Source: a virus
Direction: 5' to 3' (one strand)
Length of the DNA: 38,172 nucleotides
IMG/VR virus record: IMGVR_UViG_3300036790_000123
Location: 1 to 38,172 of that record
Shown here: positions 1-13,946 of the stretch, piece by piece
Position numbering within the stretch: the stretch's first letter is position 1
How the letters are laid out: each line of letters starts with the position of its first letter
Translations under genes and position numbers: made by a program
The notes under the pieces: generated by a model
What the model saw: the letters and a program-made list of their open reading frames with translations, nothing else
Databases searched by the model: none
Told to the model about the DNA's origin: nothing

Positions 1-641
1 AGATCAGCCACAATAGCCTGATCCTGATTTGTCGTACCGTTATTCGGAATGGTGGCATCAGTACACACCGGCAGACCGCCGAAACGGTAACCAGTGAACC
101 CTTCGATGCCCTCGTCACCATCAGACGCACCAGCACCCCACGCATTATACGGACCCTGATAATCAGCCGTAATCAACGGACGACCATTACCGTCAGCATA
201 CGAGTCAATGAACCCCCAACGCTGCGGAGTCATAAACAAATGGGTCGGATTCAAGAACGTACCAGCCGTGGTACGAATTGATGCCTTCGCCTTATTCACC
301 TGACCAGCAAAACCACCAGAACCACTCGCAGAGTACAACACGAAGTTGTTGCCTTCGCCACCCCACGTCTGCACCGTGGCACCCGAAAGCGCCGTGCTCA
401 ACACATACGCATCGAACTTCGGATTATAGTCACGATTCAACTGGTCAAAAATCAGCCGGTCAAACGCGAAACCCGGTCCAGCACGATCAAGCTGCTGCTG
501 CGACACAGTAACCTCACCCGCAAGAGTGATAACCGCAGCATTCAGGTACCCAAACGTCGGATCTGTTTCCTGAATAGCCTGACCCTCAGTCTGCGTCGCG
601 ATACCCGCCGGCCCAGTCACGTGAGGAATGTACAGATTCAT
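1..641 (-). CDS. Major capsid protein, exon 2 (HK97 fold, partial)
   Basis: This is the C-terminal part of an HK97-fold major capsid protein. It begins in frame directly after the intron with residues MNLYIPHVTG and runs off the left edge of the window after 213 codons. The text shows a shell-protein pattern: a segment of polar repeats and Q-rich helix (VTVSQQQLDRAGPGFAFDRL), an internal FLNPTHLFMTPQRWGFIDSY stretch typical of the P-domain region, and a late ...GLPVCTDATIPNN... motif. An internal ATG opens the segment, but there is no ribosome site before it, because the bases just upstream are the intron 3' end. I therefore read it as the second exon rather than a separate gene. Confidence 0.85.
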   Translation of the reverse strand, partial: MNLYIPHVTGPAGIATQTEGQAIQETDPTFGYLNAAVITLAGEVTVSQQQLDRAGPGFAFDRLIFDQLNRDYNPKFDAYVLSTALSGATVQTWGGEGNNFVLYSASGSGGFAGQVNKAKASIRTTAGTFLNPTHLFMTPQRWGFIDSYADGNGRPLITADYQGPYNAWGAGASDGDEGIEGFTGYRFGGLPVCTDATIPNNGTTNQDQAIVAD

Positions 642-917
642 CAAAATTGTTACTCTCACCCAAATGGTGAGGGCTACGTCATTTCTGCGTAGCTCTACAC
701 GTCGCCGTGTAGTTCGGACTATATCTTCCGTTTGAAAACTAACTTTCAAACAGCCTGGCGTGTAGTCTCTGAGGGGTCAATTACGACTTCCCTGCTGATT
801 GTCCGCACCGAACACATTGTCACTGCCGCAAGCGGCGAGTAGCGTCGGATTCACGGGGTTTCCAGCATACAGCCAGATTTTACTACGGCATGCAATCTAA
901 GCTGCGAGAGCAAGTCT
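642..917 (-). ncRNA. Group I self-splicing intron in the capsid gene
   Basis: This 276-nt intron has no open reading frame of its own. The 5' exon ends ACTACGGT and pairs perfectly over 8 bp with the guide GCCGTAGT at 889-882, giving the canonical U.G wobble at the splice site (P1). The three bases before the guide (CAT) can pair with the first exon-2 bases ATG (P10). The core contains GACTA and the conserved AAGATATAGTCC (about 730-715), which form P7 around a P8 hairpin GTTTGAAA/TTTCAAAC. Then come a P9 hairpin CTACACG-GCGA-CGTGTAG with a GNRA loop and two more P9-type hairpins. The intron ends in G (complement of 642). Splicing joins GGT and ATG codons without changing frame. Confidence 0.9.
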
Positions 918-1691
918 ACCGTAGTCAGGCAATACTTCCTTATGGCAAGCGTCCCCGAAGGCACGGCCCGCCTCACGCCAAGGAGCATACGGGTCCAAAA
1001 AGATAGCAGGCGACACAAACGCAGCACCACCCGACGCTGCTGACGCCGTAGCGCCACCACCCGTCGTAATACTCCGCTGCTCAACACCACTGTCCTTCTG
1101 ATCAATAGCCGTACGGCCGCGACCCTCAATCTCCCTAATCGCACGCCGAGTAACCTCAGCACTATCCGCATCGTTACCACGATAATGCGTGCGCAAACTA
1201 TCAACCGCACGCTTACCCTCATCAGTGCCGTCCGCGACCTCACGCTCAACCTGATGCGCCCAAATCGACAGACGCTCCGAAGCCTGCGTAAACCCAGGCA
1301 TGATCACACCATGCGCAGTACGCATAATGTCAGCATAATACGAATTGTCAGGATTGTCGGGGCCGTAGATCATCGGCTCCTTCACAACCTCAACCTCGGC
1401 ATCCGACACGACCGGGGCGATCAGCTTCCGTGCCTCAGCAATAGCCTTGCTCCGCTTCTCGTCCTTCGCCTCATCCTTGATGCGCTTATCCAACTCGTCG
1501 ATTTCCTTGTTACGGGCCTCAATAGCGTCCGCAACATCGCCCGGAACCTCAGGCTCCGGCACAGTCTCGCGCTCCTCATCAGAAAGGTCCTTCCATTCCT
1601 GATGGCGCGTCTCATGTTCGACGAGATCGCTTTCGTTTTCTGCGACCTTCGCATCGCGGGACTCCAAAAGACCCGCCAATACCTTGCTCAT
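918..1691 (-). CDS. Major capsid protein, exon 1 (HK97 fold)
   Basis: The first 258 codons of the capsid protein start at ATG 1691. Residues 1-100 are highly charged, acidic and helical, like the delta (scaffold) domain that the prohead protease removes in HK97-type phages. The middle ends with PYAPWREAGRAFGDACHK and VLPDYG, the region before the N-arm/E-loop join in this family. Without splicing, translation would continue eight codons into the intron and stop at 897-899, giving a 264-aa truncated product. Together with exon 2 the reading is continuous and of ordinary capsid character. The protease gene lies upstream in the same direction, separated by a rightward gene island. Confidence 0.88.
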
Positions 1692-2846: not shown

Positions 2847-3328
2847 TGGGAGATCGTGGAAATATCGTCATACGCAGCGAATGGCCTGAGGACCTTGGGG
2901 ACAAGGAAGCCGTATTTCTCTACGGTCATTGGTCGGGATCTGAACTGCCCGAGACGCTACGCGCGGCCCTCGACACACCGCAGGCGCGTGACCGTTGGAC
3001 CGATGCGCCTTACCTAGCGCGCATTATTTTCGATCAGATGGTGGGGGAATCGCAGGGAAGCGCAACGGGCTATGGGATTAGCTCGCGGTTGACTGACAAC
3101 GAGTACGATCTACTCGTGCTCAGGGTCGGTCGCGTATACGTGCTCCGCGAGAGCGAGTACAACAAGGCTGGTTTTACTGCGCTTGACGAGAGGGCATCGC
3201 TCTCTATTGAGGATTATATCGACGCGACGGAACGCACCTGGGACAATCTCGCATCCGAGTTTGGAATGCCGATGTCAGGCGATAGTAGCGACTGGTGGGA
3301 CGAAGCAAGGCTCGCCGAAGAAGTATAG
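2846..3328 (+). CDS. Conserved phage protein of unknown function
   Basis: A 160-aa protein beginning MGDRGNIVI, with VFLYGHWSGSELP and RWTDAPYLARIIFDQMVG. This combination occurs in a widespread family of small soluble phage and archaeal-virus proteins of unknown function, often called a GNIxI-type hypothetical protein. No catalytic motif is obvious. The start overlaps the preceding gene by one base. It is the longest protein of island 1. Confidence 0.75.
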   Translation: MGDRGNIVIRSEWPEDLGDKEAVFLYGHWSGSELPETLRAALDTPQARDRWTDAPYLARIIFDQMVGESQGSATGYGISSRLTDNEYDLLVLRVGRVYVLRESEYNKAGFTALDERASLSIEDYIDATERTWDNLASEFGMPMSGDSSDWWDEARLAEEV

Positions 3329-3373
3329 TCTAACTTCCCTTCCCTGAACACAACACAGAAAAGGAAACCCAAA

Positions 3374-3556
3374 ATGCGAACAGCCGCCGAGGACAACGAA
3401 GCCACACGCCTAATGCGACTTTACGATCAGCAAGTCGCTAAGCTTGACGCGACCTACCGTAGCCTACGCGAACTCGGAGTGGACATTGGGCTGCTCGACC
3501 GACGAGTGTTGCGCCACCCCCCGAAAACGCTAACCGCTGAGGACTGGAACGCCTAG
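3374..3556 (+). CDS. Small helical protein, island 1
   Basis: A 60-aa protein with an amphipathic helix (RLMRLYDQQVAKLDATYRSL). Its family is not recognised. AAAAGGAAA precedes the ATG. It ends in TAG inside CTAG at 3553-3556, where the stop codon of the leftward protease gene overlaps it. The two convergent genes therefore share four bases, with no room for a separate terminator. Confidence 0.6.
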   Translation: MRTAAEDNEATRLMRLYDQQVAKLDATYRSLRELGVDIGLLDRRVLRHPPKTLTAEDWNA

Positions 3557-5364
3557 GCTACCCTGCGCCGCTTCCTAGCCTCAAGCGCCAAGCGCAAATC
3601 ACGCACCGAACGTCCCTGAACCACAGGCACACTCGCAGCAGGCTCCCCGACAGGCACAAACGACGTTTGCGCAGCAACCTGCGCACAGTCATCAGCGAAA
3701 GTAACCACACCATCCGTCAATGTGTAACTCACCTTCCACAACCCGCAAGGATCGCCCCAAGACTCAAACACCACCCAATCGTCGCTAGCGTCACGGATCC
3801 ACAGATCACACTCAATCCACGGATTCGCCTCAAACTTAGCGACAAGAGCAGCGTAAATCAGTGACTCCTGATCACCGAAAGACATGGACGCCGTAGCGCG
3901 CTCCTCCTTCGTTGCAGGCGCAGCCCGTAGTCCCGAGCCGTCCGCATAACCCGGATACCCGTCGCCACCCATAGTAGCACCACCCTGCGACCCGTCACCA
4001 AACACCACAGACTGCAACCCCGAAGGATCGTCCCCAAGGTCCTGCACGTCATCCACATTACCAACCTCAGTCACCGTGGACTCCACACCATCCACAGGCG
4101 TAAGCGCATCCGCGTTAGTCTCACCGCGAGAATCCGGGCCGTTACCCGCATCACCATCCTGGCCGATACTCCCGTCAGGATCCATCGGAGACACCGAAGG
4201 AAGATGCGCCCCAGCATCACTCAACGCCGAATGCAACCCCATGAACGCGTCCGCAAGCATTTTCTGTGTTTGGCTTGACATTTTCGCGCCAGCACGCGTG
4301 TCAATATACATTTTGCGGATACGCGCCGCCGACTCAACCGGAACCATCTCAGCATACCGACGCATAATGTCAACGGTCGTGGACTCTGAAGCAGGAAACG
4401 ACACGATTGACACGTCCAAAAGTGAATCGAATGAGTGAATAGTGCGCTCGTCCCAGCCGTCACTCCACTCGTCCTTACCCACCCTGAATCCCACGCTCAT
4501 CTGAGATGAATCACCACGTTCCAAACTGATAGCCACGTCATTAGCTAACTGCTGACGCAAATCAAGGCAAGCCTCAAACCGCAAACCCTCAGGTGAATCC
4601 GCCAAGGTCATCGTCGGCGGCAGCCCACGATCATTCCGCGTCCGGGCTAGGCTCAAACCATCATGGTTATAAAGGAGCCTAGTGTCGCAACCTGCGGCCA
4701 ACACATCGTTTGCAACGCCCGGAGCCATACGCTCAGAGAACGAACCCAGCGCATCGGTCACGGTATATGGTGTGTCGTACACCACAGGCATCCCACTAAT
4801 CCAAAGTTCGTTAGTGTTGCTCTTTTCACGATATTCAATGCCTTCGGCATGCCAAAAGCGAACTTCTGGCATCAAAGGAACCGCGCGATGACGTGAACGC
4901 TTACGGACGTTCGGCGTAGCGGAACGCGAAGCATCATCCGTCGTGTCACCATCCACCGTGCCCGTACCGTCACAGTCAGGACAATCCCTGTTCCCGTCGA
5001 GAATCGTTCCCGTACCCTTACATGTCGGGCACTTAGCACGCTCCTCAACATCGGCAACGTCGGATTTTGCCTCAGACTTACTGCCATCAGCATTCCACGC
5101 CTCAGGCAACTTCGCCTCAAGCCCCAAAGCCTTCGCGCGCTTCACTATATGAGCACGAATCGACTTATCCGAAGCATTCCCGAGCCCGACAGTCGAAATA
5201 GCATTTTCCAAATCCTCAGCATCAGCGATCGGATACGCACCATCGGGCATCGCTTCGCCCGACTTCGCCATCCGGTCACGGTCCGCCTGCGTGTACTTGT
5301 CGCGCAACTCGGCCTCATATGCGGCCATGCGCTCCTCAACCTCAGAGGTCTGATCGATCTTCAT
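3553..5364 (-). CDS. Prohead protease with N-terminal extension (S78-type)
   Basis: A 603-aa protein expected to mature the head by cleaving the capsid delta domain. Residues 1-90 contain a small domain (DLENAISTVGLGNASDKSIR) often fused to phage proteases. At about 110-140 there are two CxxCxGxG motifs like a DnaJ zinc finger. Residues about 165-350 are the HK97-type serine protease: LLYNHDG supplies the His, and SSQMSVGF the Ser region, after FSERMAPG. The last 200 residues are acidic and Gly-rich, then end basic (ARKRRRVA). This is longer than usual (about 200 aa for the minimal enzyme), so the C-terminal part may serve as scaffold. It lies between the HAD protein and, past island 1, the capsid gene. 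Confidence 0.85.
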   Translation of the reverse strand: MKIDQTSEVEERMAAYEAELRDKYTQADRDRMAKSGEAMPDGAYPIADAEDLENAISTVGLGNASDKSIRAHIVKRAKALGLEAKLPEAWNADGSKSEAKSDVADVEERAKCPTCKGTGTILDGNRDCPDCDGTGTVDGDTTDDASRSATPNVRKRSRHRAVPLMPEVRFWHAEGIEYREKSNTNELWISGMPVVYDTPYTVTDALGSFSERMAPGVANDVLAAGCDTRLLYNHDGLSLARTRNDRGLPPTMTLADSPEGLRFEACLDLRQQLANDVAISLERGDSSQMSVGFRVGKDEWSDGWDERTIHSFDSLLDVSIVSFPASESTTVDIMRRYAEMVPVESAARIRKMYIDTRAGAKMSSQTQKMLADAFMGLHSALSDAGAHLPSVSPMDPDGSIGQDGDAGNGPDSRGETNADALTPVDGVESTVTEVGNVDDVQDLGDDPSGLQSVVFGDGSQGGATMGGDGYPGYADGSGLRAAPATKEERATASMSFGDQESLIYAALVAKFEANPWIECDLWIRDASDDWVVFESWGDPCGLWKVSYTLTDGVVTFADDCAQVAAQTSFVPVGEPAASVPVVQGRSVRDLRLALEARKRRRVA

Positions 5365-7512: not shown

Positions 7513-8439
7513 TTAGACTTTTTGCGGATATTCGCCCAAGGCCGTGAGTAATGCTTCAACCTGTTCAGGTTCAAGAATACTCTGCGCCGCTTCGGTGATT
7601 ACATCAAGAGTAAATCGTGGACGCCGGTTTGCGTTCTGTTCCGCAATCGTAGCCCACCGGCAGTTCGATGGTTCGTAGTTACCGTTTACGTTCACCCTGT
7701 CAAGGGAATATTCAGCCTTCCCACTAGGCCGCTTCCCTTCCGGACGCAAACCCATGTCCTCCAAGAAGTTTTCAAAACTTCCACCCATCTCGGGATTCCA
7801 ACGCTCACAGACCTTGATGCCGCGACCACCATAATTCGGATAGTCAAGGCTGTTGACATTAGTACAGCGATTTAACATCGAACTCCAAGTTACATGAGTC
7901 GGTGTGCCAGTGTACCCGTGACGTTTCGCATAATCGTTACCGATTATCTTCTCCATCCCTATGCAGCCGCAACTCTTACTGTTGCCACACTTGAGATTCC
8001 AACTATCCACACCATGCACAGTCGTTCCGCAATCGCATAAACACTCATACGTACGTTGGTTCGACTTACTGCGACCGTCCTCGGCGACTATGGTCAAGCG
8101 ACCATACCGTCCGTCAATTTCCACCACGCGCGGTTTACGATTACATCCACACGACTGGGACTTGCCCGCCTTGAGGCGTCCAGCAAAGACCAATCTTTCT
8201 GTGCCACAATCACATACGCAGTGATACTGGTGGTCTTTCGTGTCGGCTCGCTTGCCGACCGTCCATAGACCAATTCGCGTTCCTGCGGGGATACGCGTTT
8301 CGCGATCCGTCAAGAGCGGCGGCAACGTGCCGCGAATGCGATGATGTTCGTAGTGCTTCTTACAAACGCCGCGAGCTATCGCAAACTCGTCGCAGCCCTC
8401 CTCGATGCAGATCCTTGTCGGCCTGCTATTCTCGGTCAA
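7513..8439 (-). CDS. HNH-type homing endonuclease-like protein
   Basis: A 308-aa protein from TTG 8439, with AGAGGA 5 nt upstream. Residues 10-30 form a CxxxCDExxxxxxVCxxHY zinc motif. Two central blocks of CDCGT...CGCN type are probable zinc-binding DNA-contact units. The C-terminal third has TWSSMLNRCTN, NYGGRGIKVCERW, SFENFLEDMG and SLDRVNVNGNYEPSNCRWA. That arrangement is common to free-standing phage HNH/AP2-type homing endonucleases. It lies just upstream of the portal gene and is not inside a recognisable intron. It is likely a selfish insertion between structural genes. Confidence 0.8.
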   Translation of the reverse strand: MTENSRPTRICIEEGCDEFAIARGVCKKHYEHHRIRGTLPPLLTDRETRIPAGTRIGLWTVGKRADTKDHQYHCVCDCGTERLVFAGRLKAGKSQSCGCNRKPRVVEIDGRYGRLTIVAEDGRSKSNQRTYECLCDCGTTVHGVDSWNLKCGNSKSCGCIGMEKIIGNDYAKRHGYTGTPTHVTWSSMLNRCTNVNSLDYPNYGGRGIKVCERWNPEMGGSFENFLEDMGLRPEGKRPSGKAEYSLDRVNVNGNYEPSNCRWATIAEQNANRRPRFTLDVITEAAQSILEPEQVEALLTALGEYPQKV

Positions 8440-8716: not shown

Positions 8717-8801
8717 TGCCCGGGGCGAGAGTCGAACTCGCAAGCAACAAAGTTGCGGCGGCTTTTGAGGCCGCTCCCTATACCAATTTGGGCACCCGGG
8801 C
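8717..8801 (-). tRNA. tRNA-Leu (anticodon CAA)
   Basis: An 85-nt type II tRNA read leftward. The acceptor is GCCCGGG/CCCGGGC with discriminator A. The anticodon stem GCGGC/GCCGC holds the loop CTCAAAA (anticodon CAA, decoding UUG). There is a long variable arm GCAAC/GTTGC and a T-arm GCGAG-TTCGACT-CTCGC. CCA is not encoded. All stems pair and the invariant T-loop is intact, so it should be functional. Confidence 0.92.
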
Positions 8802-11560: not shown

Positions 11561-12925
11561 ATGTCTGACCGCGAATGGCTGGCAAACAGCCTTACACGTC
11601 GCGAGCCGACACACGCAGTAGCGAAGCACATCGCCTCACTTGATCTCGCGCTGCCAGTATCACTCGGACGACAGGTTTCGTCACTAGGACGCTCCCGCGA
11701 ATGGTACATGAACGACGACTTTGATGTTGTCGTTCCCGCACAGCATCAAGTGGACACGTTCGATACGTTGTTCGGTATTCGCTCCGCTGACCCGACAAGT
11801 CCGCAAGCGCTACGTCAACTAGTCGCAGACGGCATGCGTTACCTCGGGTATGGTGACGAGCACCCGACCGCGATTCTCGCAGCATGCACACGCCTCAAGA
11901 CATACGCCCACAAGCGCGTGCGGTTCCTGCGGCGACTAGACGAAAAGGCTGACCGCCTTGAGGCGAACTGGCGACTCCGACACGCACAAATGCAGGCTAA
12001 GAGCCGTCTGGCGTACCGAATCGACGCTGACCGTTGCGACGACCTGACACTCGCTTGCTGCGCATATTGGGCAGCGCGAGCAAACCGACGCTCCATCTTT
12101 ATGGTCGGGTCACAAAGCCGCGCAAAGGACGAGATAGCCGAAGGACTAGGCGCGCTTCTTGCGGACAATGAACGTACCGACTGGTACTCCGTCGCGCTTA
12201 TTCACCCCACAAAGGACGTGATCGAACAACTAGCGGCCGAAGAACGCGGGCGACTGCTCAGCACATTCCACTCTGAAATGGCTATCGCTGCGCGCGAGCT
12301 TGCAAAGCTCTGGCCGACATTGCCAGTTCGAATGCGTGCCGAGATGGTTGTCGTGCGCGGCATCGACTCGTCGCGATGGAATGCCTACGCCGGAGCGCTC
12401 AACACAATGCGTCAGGCGTGGATCAGCGCTGTTGTAGCGTCCAATCTAGACGCAATCCTAGAAAGCTACCTACCAGGCAAAACGCCCCGCCTCATGGCGT
12501 CAGACGTTGCGTGGATGTATCGCGGACATGGCATGGAGTTACACGAAGATACGCGCATGTTCGTGCGCCTAGAATCCCCGTGGGATGTAGTCAACGGCGT
12601 GCGCACTCAAGGACGTGCTCAAGTTCTCGCGGCCGCGAAGCTTGCCAACGTAAACGCAACGGAGACGGGATGGATAGGCCCACACAAGTCGATAGCGGCC
12701 GAAGCACCCACGCCCGAACCTGCGCTAGTACACGGTGTGGTAGTTACCGATCCCGAACTAGCGGAAACACTCAAGCGGTGCGGTGTGTTCAGCGGCAAAG
12801 AACTCAAGCACCTAGACGAACTACTTGCAGCCCCGTCGATTAGGCGTCGTGAGATTCGCGATGGTGACTCGATATTGCCGTATGTAGAGCCCGCAGACAA
12901 GTCGCCACTATACGGTAGGATCTAG
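11561..12925 (+). CDS. Unrecognised 454-aa protein leading the RNA-repair cassette
   Basis: Starts at ATG 11561 (MSDREWLANSLTRREPTH), with GAGGG 8 nt upstream inside the tRNA-like element. It has 454 residues. It is soluble, Arg- and Ala-rich and mostly helical, with a basic helical middle (AHKRVRFLRRLDEKADRLEA) that may contact RNA. There are no transmembrane segments. I see no P-loop, KxDG, HAD or nuclease motif. It lies five bases upstream of the RNA ligase GTG, so it is probably translated with it. By position it is a candidate extra component of the tRNA-repair system, such as an RNA-binding or chaperone subunit, but this is inference. Confidence 0.75.
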   Translation: MSDREWLANSLTRREPTHAVAKHIASLDLALPVSLGRQVSSLGRSREWYMNDDFDVVVPAQHQVDTFDTLFGIRSADPTSPQALRQLVADGMRYLGYGDEHPTAILAACTRLKTYAHKRVRFLRRLDEKADRLEANWRLRHAQMQAKSRLAYRIDADRCDDLTLACCAYWAARANRRSIFMVGSQSRAKDEIAEGLGALLADNERTDWYSVALIHPTKDVIEQLAAEERGRLLSTFHSEMAIAARELAKLWPTLPVRMRAEMVVVRGIDSSRWNAYAGALNTMRQAWISAVVASNLDAILESYLPGKTPRLMASDVAWMYRGHGMELHEDTRMFVRLESPWDVVNGVRTQGRAQVLAAAKLANVNATETGWIGPHKSIAAEAPTPEPALVHGVVVTDPELAETLKRCGVFSGKELKHLDELLAAPSIRRREIRDGDSILPYVEPADKSPLYGRI

Positions 12926-12929
12926 TGCG

Positions 12930-13946
12930 GTGTTCGACCGTGAGCAGTTAGACTCACTCGTCGCTGAAGGGTGGCTGCGATCACAACGCCACCCCGAAGC
13001 CGACCTTTGGATCTACAACTACACTGAACACACACAATTCGAATCGCACTGGACACCCGAAACGCTCGCATGTCGCGGCTTGGTTCTCGACACGGACGGC
13101 AACGTGATCGCCCGGCCGTTCCCAAAGTTCTTCAACTACGGTGACCCGCAAATCGGTGAAATCCCGATAGAACCATACACCGTCACCGAAAAGCTCGACG
13201 GCAGCCTAGGCATCGTCTACCGCTTGGAAGGCGTCCCGCACATCGCGACACGCGGATCATTCACAAGCGACCAAGCAATAAAGGGAACCGCGATGCTGCG
13301 AGAACAAGAACTCGCGCACTTCGACGGAATCACGGCGCTCTTCGAAATCGTGTACCCCGAAAACAGGATCGTCGTGGACTACGGCGGCCAAACAGCACTC
13401 ACCCTACTCGCCGCCATCGACAACGCTACGGGCCTCGACACGGCACTACCGTACTACACTGGCCCGAAGGTCCAACACCACGGCGAAGTCTCGTTAGAAA
13501 CGCTCACAACGCACGACAGGCCCAACTGTGAAGGCTACGTCGTCGCGTTCCAATCTGGTTTGCGCGTAAAAGTCAAGCACGCAGAATACGTGAGACTCCA
13601 CAAGATCGTCACAGGCATCAACGCCAGGTTCGTCTGGGAATCAATGCGCGCAGGCGATGACCTCACTACGCTACTCACTGGCATACCCGACGAAATCTAC
13701 CAATGGGTAGATAATACACGCAGACAAATTCAGTTCGATTACGACGAACTAGAGGCAGCCGCGCTAACCGTATTCACTCAGCGACCGCTTGACGTTGAAC
13801 GTAAAGAGATCGCCGCATATTTTCTCGGATCGTCTGCTAGCCCATCGGTGATGTTCAGCATGCTGGACGGCAAAGACTACGCTGACATAATCTGGAAAGC
13901 CATCCGACCAGAAGCACTCACACCAACCTATGGGGACATCGCATGA
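12930..13946 (+). CDS. RNA ligase, T4 Rnl1-like
   Basis: A 338-aa ATP-dependent RNA ligase that would seal 3'-OH and 5'-phosphate ends. Nucleotidyltransferase motifs in order: TLACRGLVLD upstream, EKLDGSLG with the adenylated Lys at about residue 88 (motif I), ATRGSF (motif Ia-like), LFEIVYPENRIVVDYG (motif III/IIIa), CEGYVVAF (motif IV) and RVKVKHAEYVRLHK (motif V). The length is close to T4 Rnl1 (374 aa). It starts at GTG 12930 after TAGGA and overlaps the kinase gene by ATGA. In T4, Rnl1 and Pnkp together repair tRNA cut by host anticodon nucleases. Confidence 0.9.
   Translation: MFDREQLDSLVAEGWLRSQRHPEADLWIYNYTEHTQFESHWTPETLACRGLVLDTDGNVIARPFPKFFNYGDPQIGEIPIEPYTVTEKLDGSLGIVYRLEGVPHIATRGSFTSDQAIKGTAMLREQELAHFDGITALFEIVYPENRIVVDYGGQTALTLLAAIDNATGLDTALPYYTGPKVQHHGEVSLETLTTHDRPNCEGYVVAFQSGLRVKVKHAEYVRLHKIVTGINARFVWESMRAGDDLTTLLTGIPDEIYQWVDNTRRQIQFDYDELEAAALTVFTQRPLDVERKEIAAYFLGSSASPSVMFSMLDGKDYADIIWKAIRPEALTPTYGDIA

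What the first reader, a model, noticed from the sequence alone, without database searches (positions are those of the whole stretch)
642..917. Compact group I intron in the major capsid gene without its own endonuclease
The sequence allows P1 (8 bp with U.G at the splice site), P10, P7/P8 around AAGATATAGTCC, and a GNRA-capped P9 to be drawn. The splice keeps the capsid frame. A 276-nt intron with no homing nuclease in an essential late gene suggests mobility in trans or long-term fixation.
Basis: partly seen in the sequence, partly recalled or inferred. Interest (0 to 1): 0.8.

Follow-up and report, generated by a model that had tools for sequence, protein, structure and literature searches.

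The report
Self-splicing intron in phage capsid gene
The major coat-protein gene of this uncultivated, probably actinobacterial phage is interrupted by a small self-splicing RNA (a group I intron) without the DNA-cutting gene that usually spreads such introns; a related phage carries the same intron at the same site with that gene, so this is a real but ordinary member of a known kind, shaped by recent horizontal spread.

Summary
Window 642-917 (minus) is a 276-nt group I intron: Rfam RF00028 68.7 bits, E 1.5e-15. G642|A641), 8-bp P1, P10, P7, P8 and GCGA-capped P9 all hold; Rfam's own P1 is the worse one. Splicing rebuilds LPDYG|MNLYIP with no gap against about 16 intron-less relatives.

The decisive find is L122 (IMGVR_UViG_3300036893_000071): the same intron at the same site in a related MCP, carrying a 180-aa Endonuclease VII-type nuclease gene in P8. 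Exon and guide sequence change together between the two, and 14 of 65 pairs covary. The introns are 83-84% identical, exon 2 only 58%, and the site is empty in most relatives. This fits recent horizontal transfer with the nuclease gene absent or lost, not long-term fixation. Mobilisation in trans is plausible but unshown; no relative of that nuclease lies on this partial contig.

Capsid introns are known (LittleE, PMC3706429; Tuc2009, cited there). Side result: in a sample of 30 introns picked by a core motif, 14 neighbour MCP genes, all on contigs under 25 kb, so contig-selection bias is possible.

The parts
918..1691 (-). MCP exon 1 (258 codons, ends ..LPDYG, GGU|)
642..917 (-). 276-nt group I intron, no ORF of its own (5' A917, omega-G at 642)
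1..641 (-). MCP exon 2 (AUG|MNLYIP..), cut off by the contig end
882..889 (-). P1 3' strand / internal guide GCCGUAGU, pairs exon 925-918 ACUACGGU, U.G at 918/889
   Evidence: pair 924/883 is C-G here and G-C in L122
890..892 (-). P10 strand CAU, pairs with 3' exon AUG 641-639 (same CAU/AUG in L122)
   Evidence: sequence
755..876 (-). P3 CUGGC 876-872 / GCCAG 759-755
   Evidence: two pairs with changes on both sides
793..867 (-). P4 867-862/798-793, P5 856-854/805-803, P5a 848-845/811-808
773..792 (-). P6 792-790/775-773 and P6a 787-785/778-776
   Evidence: invariant
717..767 (-). P7 GACUA 767-763 / UAGUC 721-717 (in AAGAUAUAGUCC)
728..753 (-). P8 short hairpin 753-744/737-728; the nuclease gene of L122 sits in this loop
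695..712 (-). P9 CUACACG-GCGA-CGUGUAG (GNRA loop)
   Evidence: 4 of 7 pairs change on both sides, all paired
673..693 (-). P9.1 GCUACG CAGAAAUGA CGUAGC (loop shared by many phage introns)
655..671 (-). P9.2 hairpin
7516..8439 (-). free-standing HNH protein upstream of the portal gene (PHROG 374); possible but untested helper for homing
   Evidence: no link to the MCP site shown

Best explanation
The transcript of the MCP gene carries a compact, apparently complete group I intron. It folds from P1 to P9.2, uses an external guanosine to cut after U918 (P1, U.G), and joins U918 to A641 with the help of P10 and omega-G642, restoring the HK97-fold capsid frame (inferred from sequence and covariation, not shown by experiment). 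The intron came to this site by homing. The same intron in the relative L122 carries an Endonuclease VII-type gene in P8; the window copy lacks it, by loss or because it represents the nuclease-less form, and is now inherited passively or moved in trans by such nucleases in co-infecting phages (inferred; about 0.6 likely within this explanation).
For: RF00028 68.7 bits. Gap-free MCP reconstruction against intron-less relatives with LPDYG/M.. at the junction. L122 intron, 821 nt, same junction GGU|AUG, 83-84% identical outside its ORF. Structure test on three introns: 95.2% of cells paired against 30.8-42.5% when slid, 14 covarying pairs, 0/500 shuffles, including the exon-IGS pair 924/883. The L122 ORF is Pfam Endonuclease_7, E 2.9e-13. 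The site is empty in about 16 relatives, and another intron sits 8 nt away in L098. Intron 83-84% against exon 2 58% nucleotide identity.
Against: No RNA data. The covariation test rests on three sequences, two of them at one site, and the structure was drawn on one of them. Higher intron than exon identity may partly reflect structural constraint: a different-site intron (L106) is still 65% identical to the window's. Direction (loss against never gained) is not resolved with only two same-site copies. No helper nuclease is identified on the partial contig.
Confidence: 0.9

Rival explanations
1. Long-term fixation: the intron entered an ancestor of this MCP lineage, lost its nuclease and has since been inherited vertically.
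For: Intact core, no nuclease remnant in P8; the MCP of the L122 lineage is related.
Against: Absent from the closest relative L089/L250 (62% identical MCP) and about 15 others; intron 83-84% against exon 2 58% identity.
Confidence: 0.12
2. Collaborative homing: a free-standing nuclease of this same phage (for example the HNH at 7516-8439) cuts intron-less MCP genes at the site, as F-CphI does for the psbA intron site of cyanophages. This is a variant of the best explanation, not exclusive of it.
For: A free-standing HNH is encoded about 6 kb away; the mechanism is documented with an Endonuclease VII-type enzyme (PMC6083498).
Against: HNH genes also lie near the portal in related contigs whose MCP has no intron (L089, L100); no target information; unlike the L122 nuclease it is not tied to the site.
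Confidence: 0.2
3. No splicing: the gene is split or decayed and makes a 264-aa product plus a separate protein from AUG 641.
For: Exon 2 happens to begin with AUG; the unspliced frame stops after codon 264.
Against: AUG 641 is the conserved Met of intron-less homologues; the break is inside the capsid domain; intact core with covariation; splicing of a capsid intron in a phage with a related MCP was shown (PMC3706429).
Confidence: 0.03

Closest known systems
L122 MCP intron, IMGVR_UViG_3300036893_000071 (uncultivated, found here)
   Same: same site GGU|AUG, same core, 83-84% identical, same P10
   Different: 821 nt with a 180-aa Endonuclease VII-type ORF in P8
LittleE MCP intron, cluster J mycobacteriophage (PMC3706429)
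   Same: group I-like intron in the capsid gene of an actinophage with a distantly related MCP; splicing shown by RT-PCR and N-terminal sequencing
   Different: 819 bp, other site (near the maturation cleavage site), LAGLIDADG-like ORF on the opposite strand
BAKA/Optimus minor tail gene intron (PMC3706429)
   Same: 265 bp, no nuclease gene, virion gene, spliced
   Different: tail gene, other site
Lactococcus phage LW81 nrdE intron (KY554777)
   Same: P4'-P6-P7-P3' stretch 95.7% identical over 46 nt; HNH ORF inserted in P8
   Different: ribonucleotide reductase gene; with nuclease gene
Lysinibacillus phage LysYB1 MCP intron (OP628075)
   Same: group I intron in an MCP gene with the same P9.1 motif
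   Different: unrelated MCP family, followed by an HNH-like frame
S-PM2 psbA intron with F-CphI (PMC6083498)
   Same: group I intron that may be spread by an Endonuclease VII-type homing enzyme
   Different: psbA gene; helper tested there, not here

Membership tests
Group I intron (RF00028) | conserved catalytic core P3-P8 with P7 guanosine site | tested here: met
   68.7 bits, gathering score 50; P3-P9 pairs hold in three introns
Group I intron (RF00028) | 5' exon ends in U paired to G of an internal guide sequence (P1) | tested here: met
   8 bp, U918.G889; covaries with L122
Group I intron (RF00028) | intron ends in omega-G; exon join restores the host gene | tested here: met
   G642; gap-free MCP
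Group I intron (RF00028) | guanosine-dependent self-splicing | not testable with these tools
   needs in vitro transcription
Mobile (nuclease-encoding) group I intron | intron-encoded homing endonuclease | tested here: not met
   no such ORF in 642-917; present in the same-site intron of L122
Collaborative homing pair | free-standing nuclease cutting the empty site | not testable with these tools
   HNH candidate at 7516-8439, target unknown
Group I subgroup IA | extra hairpins P7.1/P7.2 between P7 and P3' (definition from general knowledge) | tested here: not met
   only CAC lies between the P7 5' strand and P3' (762-760); subgroup left unassigned

The most novel reading that the evidence does not exclude
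Major capsid genes of several unrelated capsid families are a preferred home of compact phage group I introns in uncultivated smaller phages, contrary to the published view that phage group I introns favour nucleotide and DNA metabolism genes; the window/L122 pair captures a nuclease-less and a nuclease-carrying form of one intron at one capsid site.
Probability: 0.45. Interest if true: 0.55.

Novelty: new member of a known kind. Interest (0 to 1): 0.38.

Why it matters
It adds a well-supported capsid-gene intron in a phage lineage whose relatives lie in Acidimicrobiaceae and Solirubrobacterales assemblies, and, with L122, a natural nuclease-plus/nuclease-minus pair at one site plus many empty alleles: a direct test bed for the homing cycle and for trans mobilisation. 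Gene callers would report this MCP as broken. If the capsid bias in the small sample holds beyond contig-selection effects, the accepted picture of where phage introns live needs revision.

Tried and rejected
Rfam's P1 (splice U at 913): rejected, mismatched and not covarying. L098 intron at first taken as the same site: it is a different intron type 8 nt downstream, below Rfam detection; its P1 could not be settled (only about 3 bp). First boundaries for the second L098 intron (13603-13843) replaced by 13585-13846, which restores TLQVILQQYSY. A supposed shared contig break with L089 was an artefact of the fetch length (retracted). L265 was suspected of an intron: it is two adjacent capsid paralogues. 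A single-protein MCP search and an exact 40-nt core search of viral contigs found no further same-site copies; the L122 nuclease search found only itself.

Full report
CHECK OF THE OBSERVATION. Rfam places a full-length group I intron (RF00028) at 922..695 on the minus strand, 68.7 bits, E 1.5e-15, the only one on the 38-kb contig. The unspliced frame stops six codons into the intron. P1 is ACUACGGU/GCCGUAGU, 8 bp with U.G at the cut; 170 of 20000 shuffles do as well. P10 is AUG/CAU. P3 to P9.2 can all be drawn; P9 has a GCGA tetraloop. No P7.1/P7.2 lies between P7 and P3', so it is not a standard IA phage intron; I leave the subgroup open.

SPLICE JUNCTION AGAINST RELATIVES. Mycobacteriophage capsid proteins align across the junction without a gap. 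Portal and MCP searches of IMG/VR gave close relatives. MCP is uninterrupted in L089 (62% identical; LPDYGMQIYIP), L090 (LPDYGMEVYIP), L091, L099, L100, L102 and others, about 16 distinct alleles. In the broader set, 90 of 92 loci with an MCP match span the site unbroken; the other two are the window itself and L098.

THE SAME-SITE RELATIVE. A scan with the P9.1 motif of the intron brought in L122. Its MCP (exon 2 56% identical in protein) is cut at exactly GGU|AUG by an 821-nt intron (reverse-strand 3165-3985) whose non-coding part is 83-84% identical to the window's. In its P8 lies a 180-aa ORF matching Endonuclease_7, E 2.9e-13. P1 covaries with the exon: window C924-G883 becomes G-C in L122. 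On window, L122 and the different-site intron of L106, 95.2% of structure cells are paired (30.8-42.5% when slid), 14 pairs change on both sides, and 0/500 shuffles reach this. Three sequences are few, but the changes are spread over P1, P3, P5a, P8, P9, P9.1 and P9.2.

MOVEMENT. Exon 2 of window and L122 is 58% identical in DNA with no shared run over 14 nt, while the introns are 83-84% identical, with long identical core stretches. An intron of the same type at another site in another MCP family (L106) is 65% identical to the window's, so structural constraint alone does not explain the value. With the patchy distribution this argues for recent horizontal transfer. No relative of the L122 nuclease is on the window contig, which is incomplete. 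The free-standing HNH at 7516-8439 is a possible helper, but similar HNH genes sit near the portal in intron-less relatives. Trans mobilisation of ORF-less introns is described in the literature (PMC3984707, PMC6083498).

A SECOND INTRON TYPE IN THE SAME GENE. L098 carries two ORF-less introns in its MCP: one 8 nt downstream of the window site (12602-12867) and one near the C-terminus (13585-13846); L122 has the latter too (reverse-strand 4711-4973). Removing them rebuilds full-length capsid proteins matching L099/L100/L102. Their cores are nearly identical, with compensating changes in P9.1 (GCUGAG/CUCAGC, GCUAGG/CCUAGC), and Rfam does not detect them.

A WIDER PATTERN. Of the P9.1-motif loci, the interrupted genes recognised by PHROGs are mostly major head proteins of several unrelated families. 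In 30 of the resulting 3' neighbour ORFs scanned one by one, 14 are major head proteins, 2 tape measure, 1 each portal, terminase, PhoH, UvsX, exonuclease and carbamoyltransferase, 1 an HNH, the rest unassigned (whole-set tallies). The neighbour ORF was chosen by position and may not always be the interrupted gene. All 14 are on contigs under 25 kb (14 of 20) and none on larger ones (0 of 10; Fisher P 0.0003). So either smaller phages carry capsid introns, or short contigs enter IMG/VR because of their MCP. A recent paper states a preference of phage group I introns for nucleotide and DNA metabolism genes (PMC12350094).

NOVELTY. A capsid-gene intron was shown to splice in LittleE, with an ORF-less tail-gene intron in BAKA, and a Tuc2009 capsid intron is cited there (PMC3706429). 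The window intron is a new member of a known kind. Splicing is inferred, not shown. Relatives of its MCP occur in an Acidimicrobiaceae and a Solirubrobacterales assembly, which suggests an actinobacterial host.

Noticed in passing
window 7471-6143 (minus), TAG at 7366-7364: The portal N-terminus (MTINRLLES..GYSLVDP) is cut off by an in-frame TAG from the conserved LSAIPPPGL.. that follows in the same frame; L089 has a TAG nearby at another position and L090 looks frameshifted there, while other relatives are open. Readthrough, recoding or sequence error is unresolved.
   Followed up: partly
L098 12602-12867 and 13585-13846; L122 reverse strand 4711-4973: Near-identical ORF-less group I introns at two sites of one MCP gene, with compensating P9.1 changes; not detected by Rfam.
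   Followed up: partly
L130-L164 sample: About half of the introns found by a core motif neighbour major capsid genes, only on contigs under 25 kb.
   Followed up: partly
L097 from 6906: The portal gene of this relative appears to hold an intein (ends ..FVPTHN|TLLQLDVV).
   Followed up: no
L102, L100, L099, L265 and others: A second, about 30% identical capsid-like gene directly follows the MCP in many relatives.
   Followed up: no
window 8717-8801 (minus): tRNA-Leu (CAA) near the HNH gene.
   Followed up: no
window 3553-5364 (minus): The prohead protease carries a DnaJ-like CxxCxGxG zinc motif before the S78 domain.
   Followed up: no
L002 about 1382-2258 (Lactococcus phage LW81 nrdE): An intron core stretch 95.7% identical over 46 nt to the window intron despite a distant phage and gene; HNH in P8.
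   Followed up: partly
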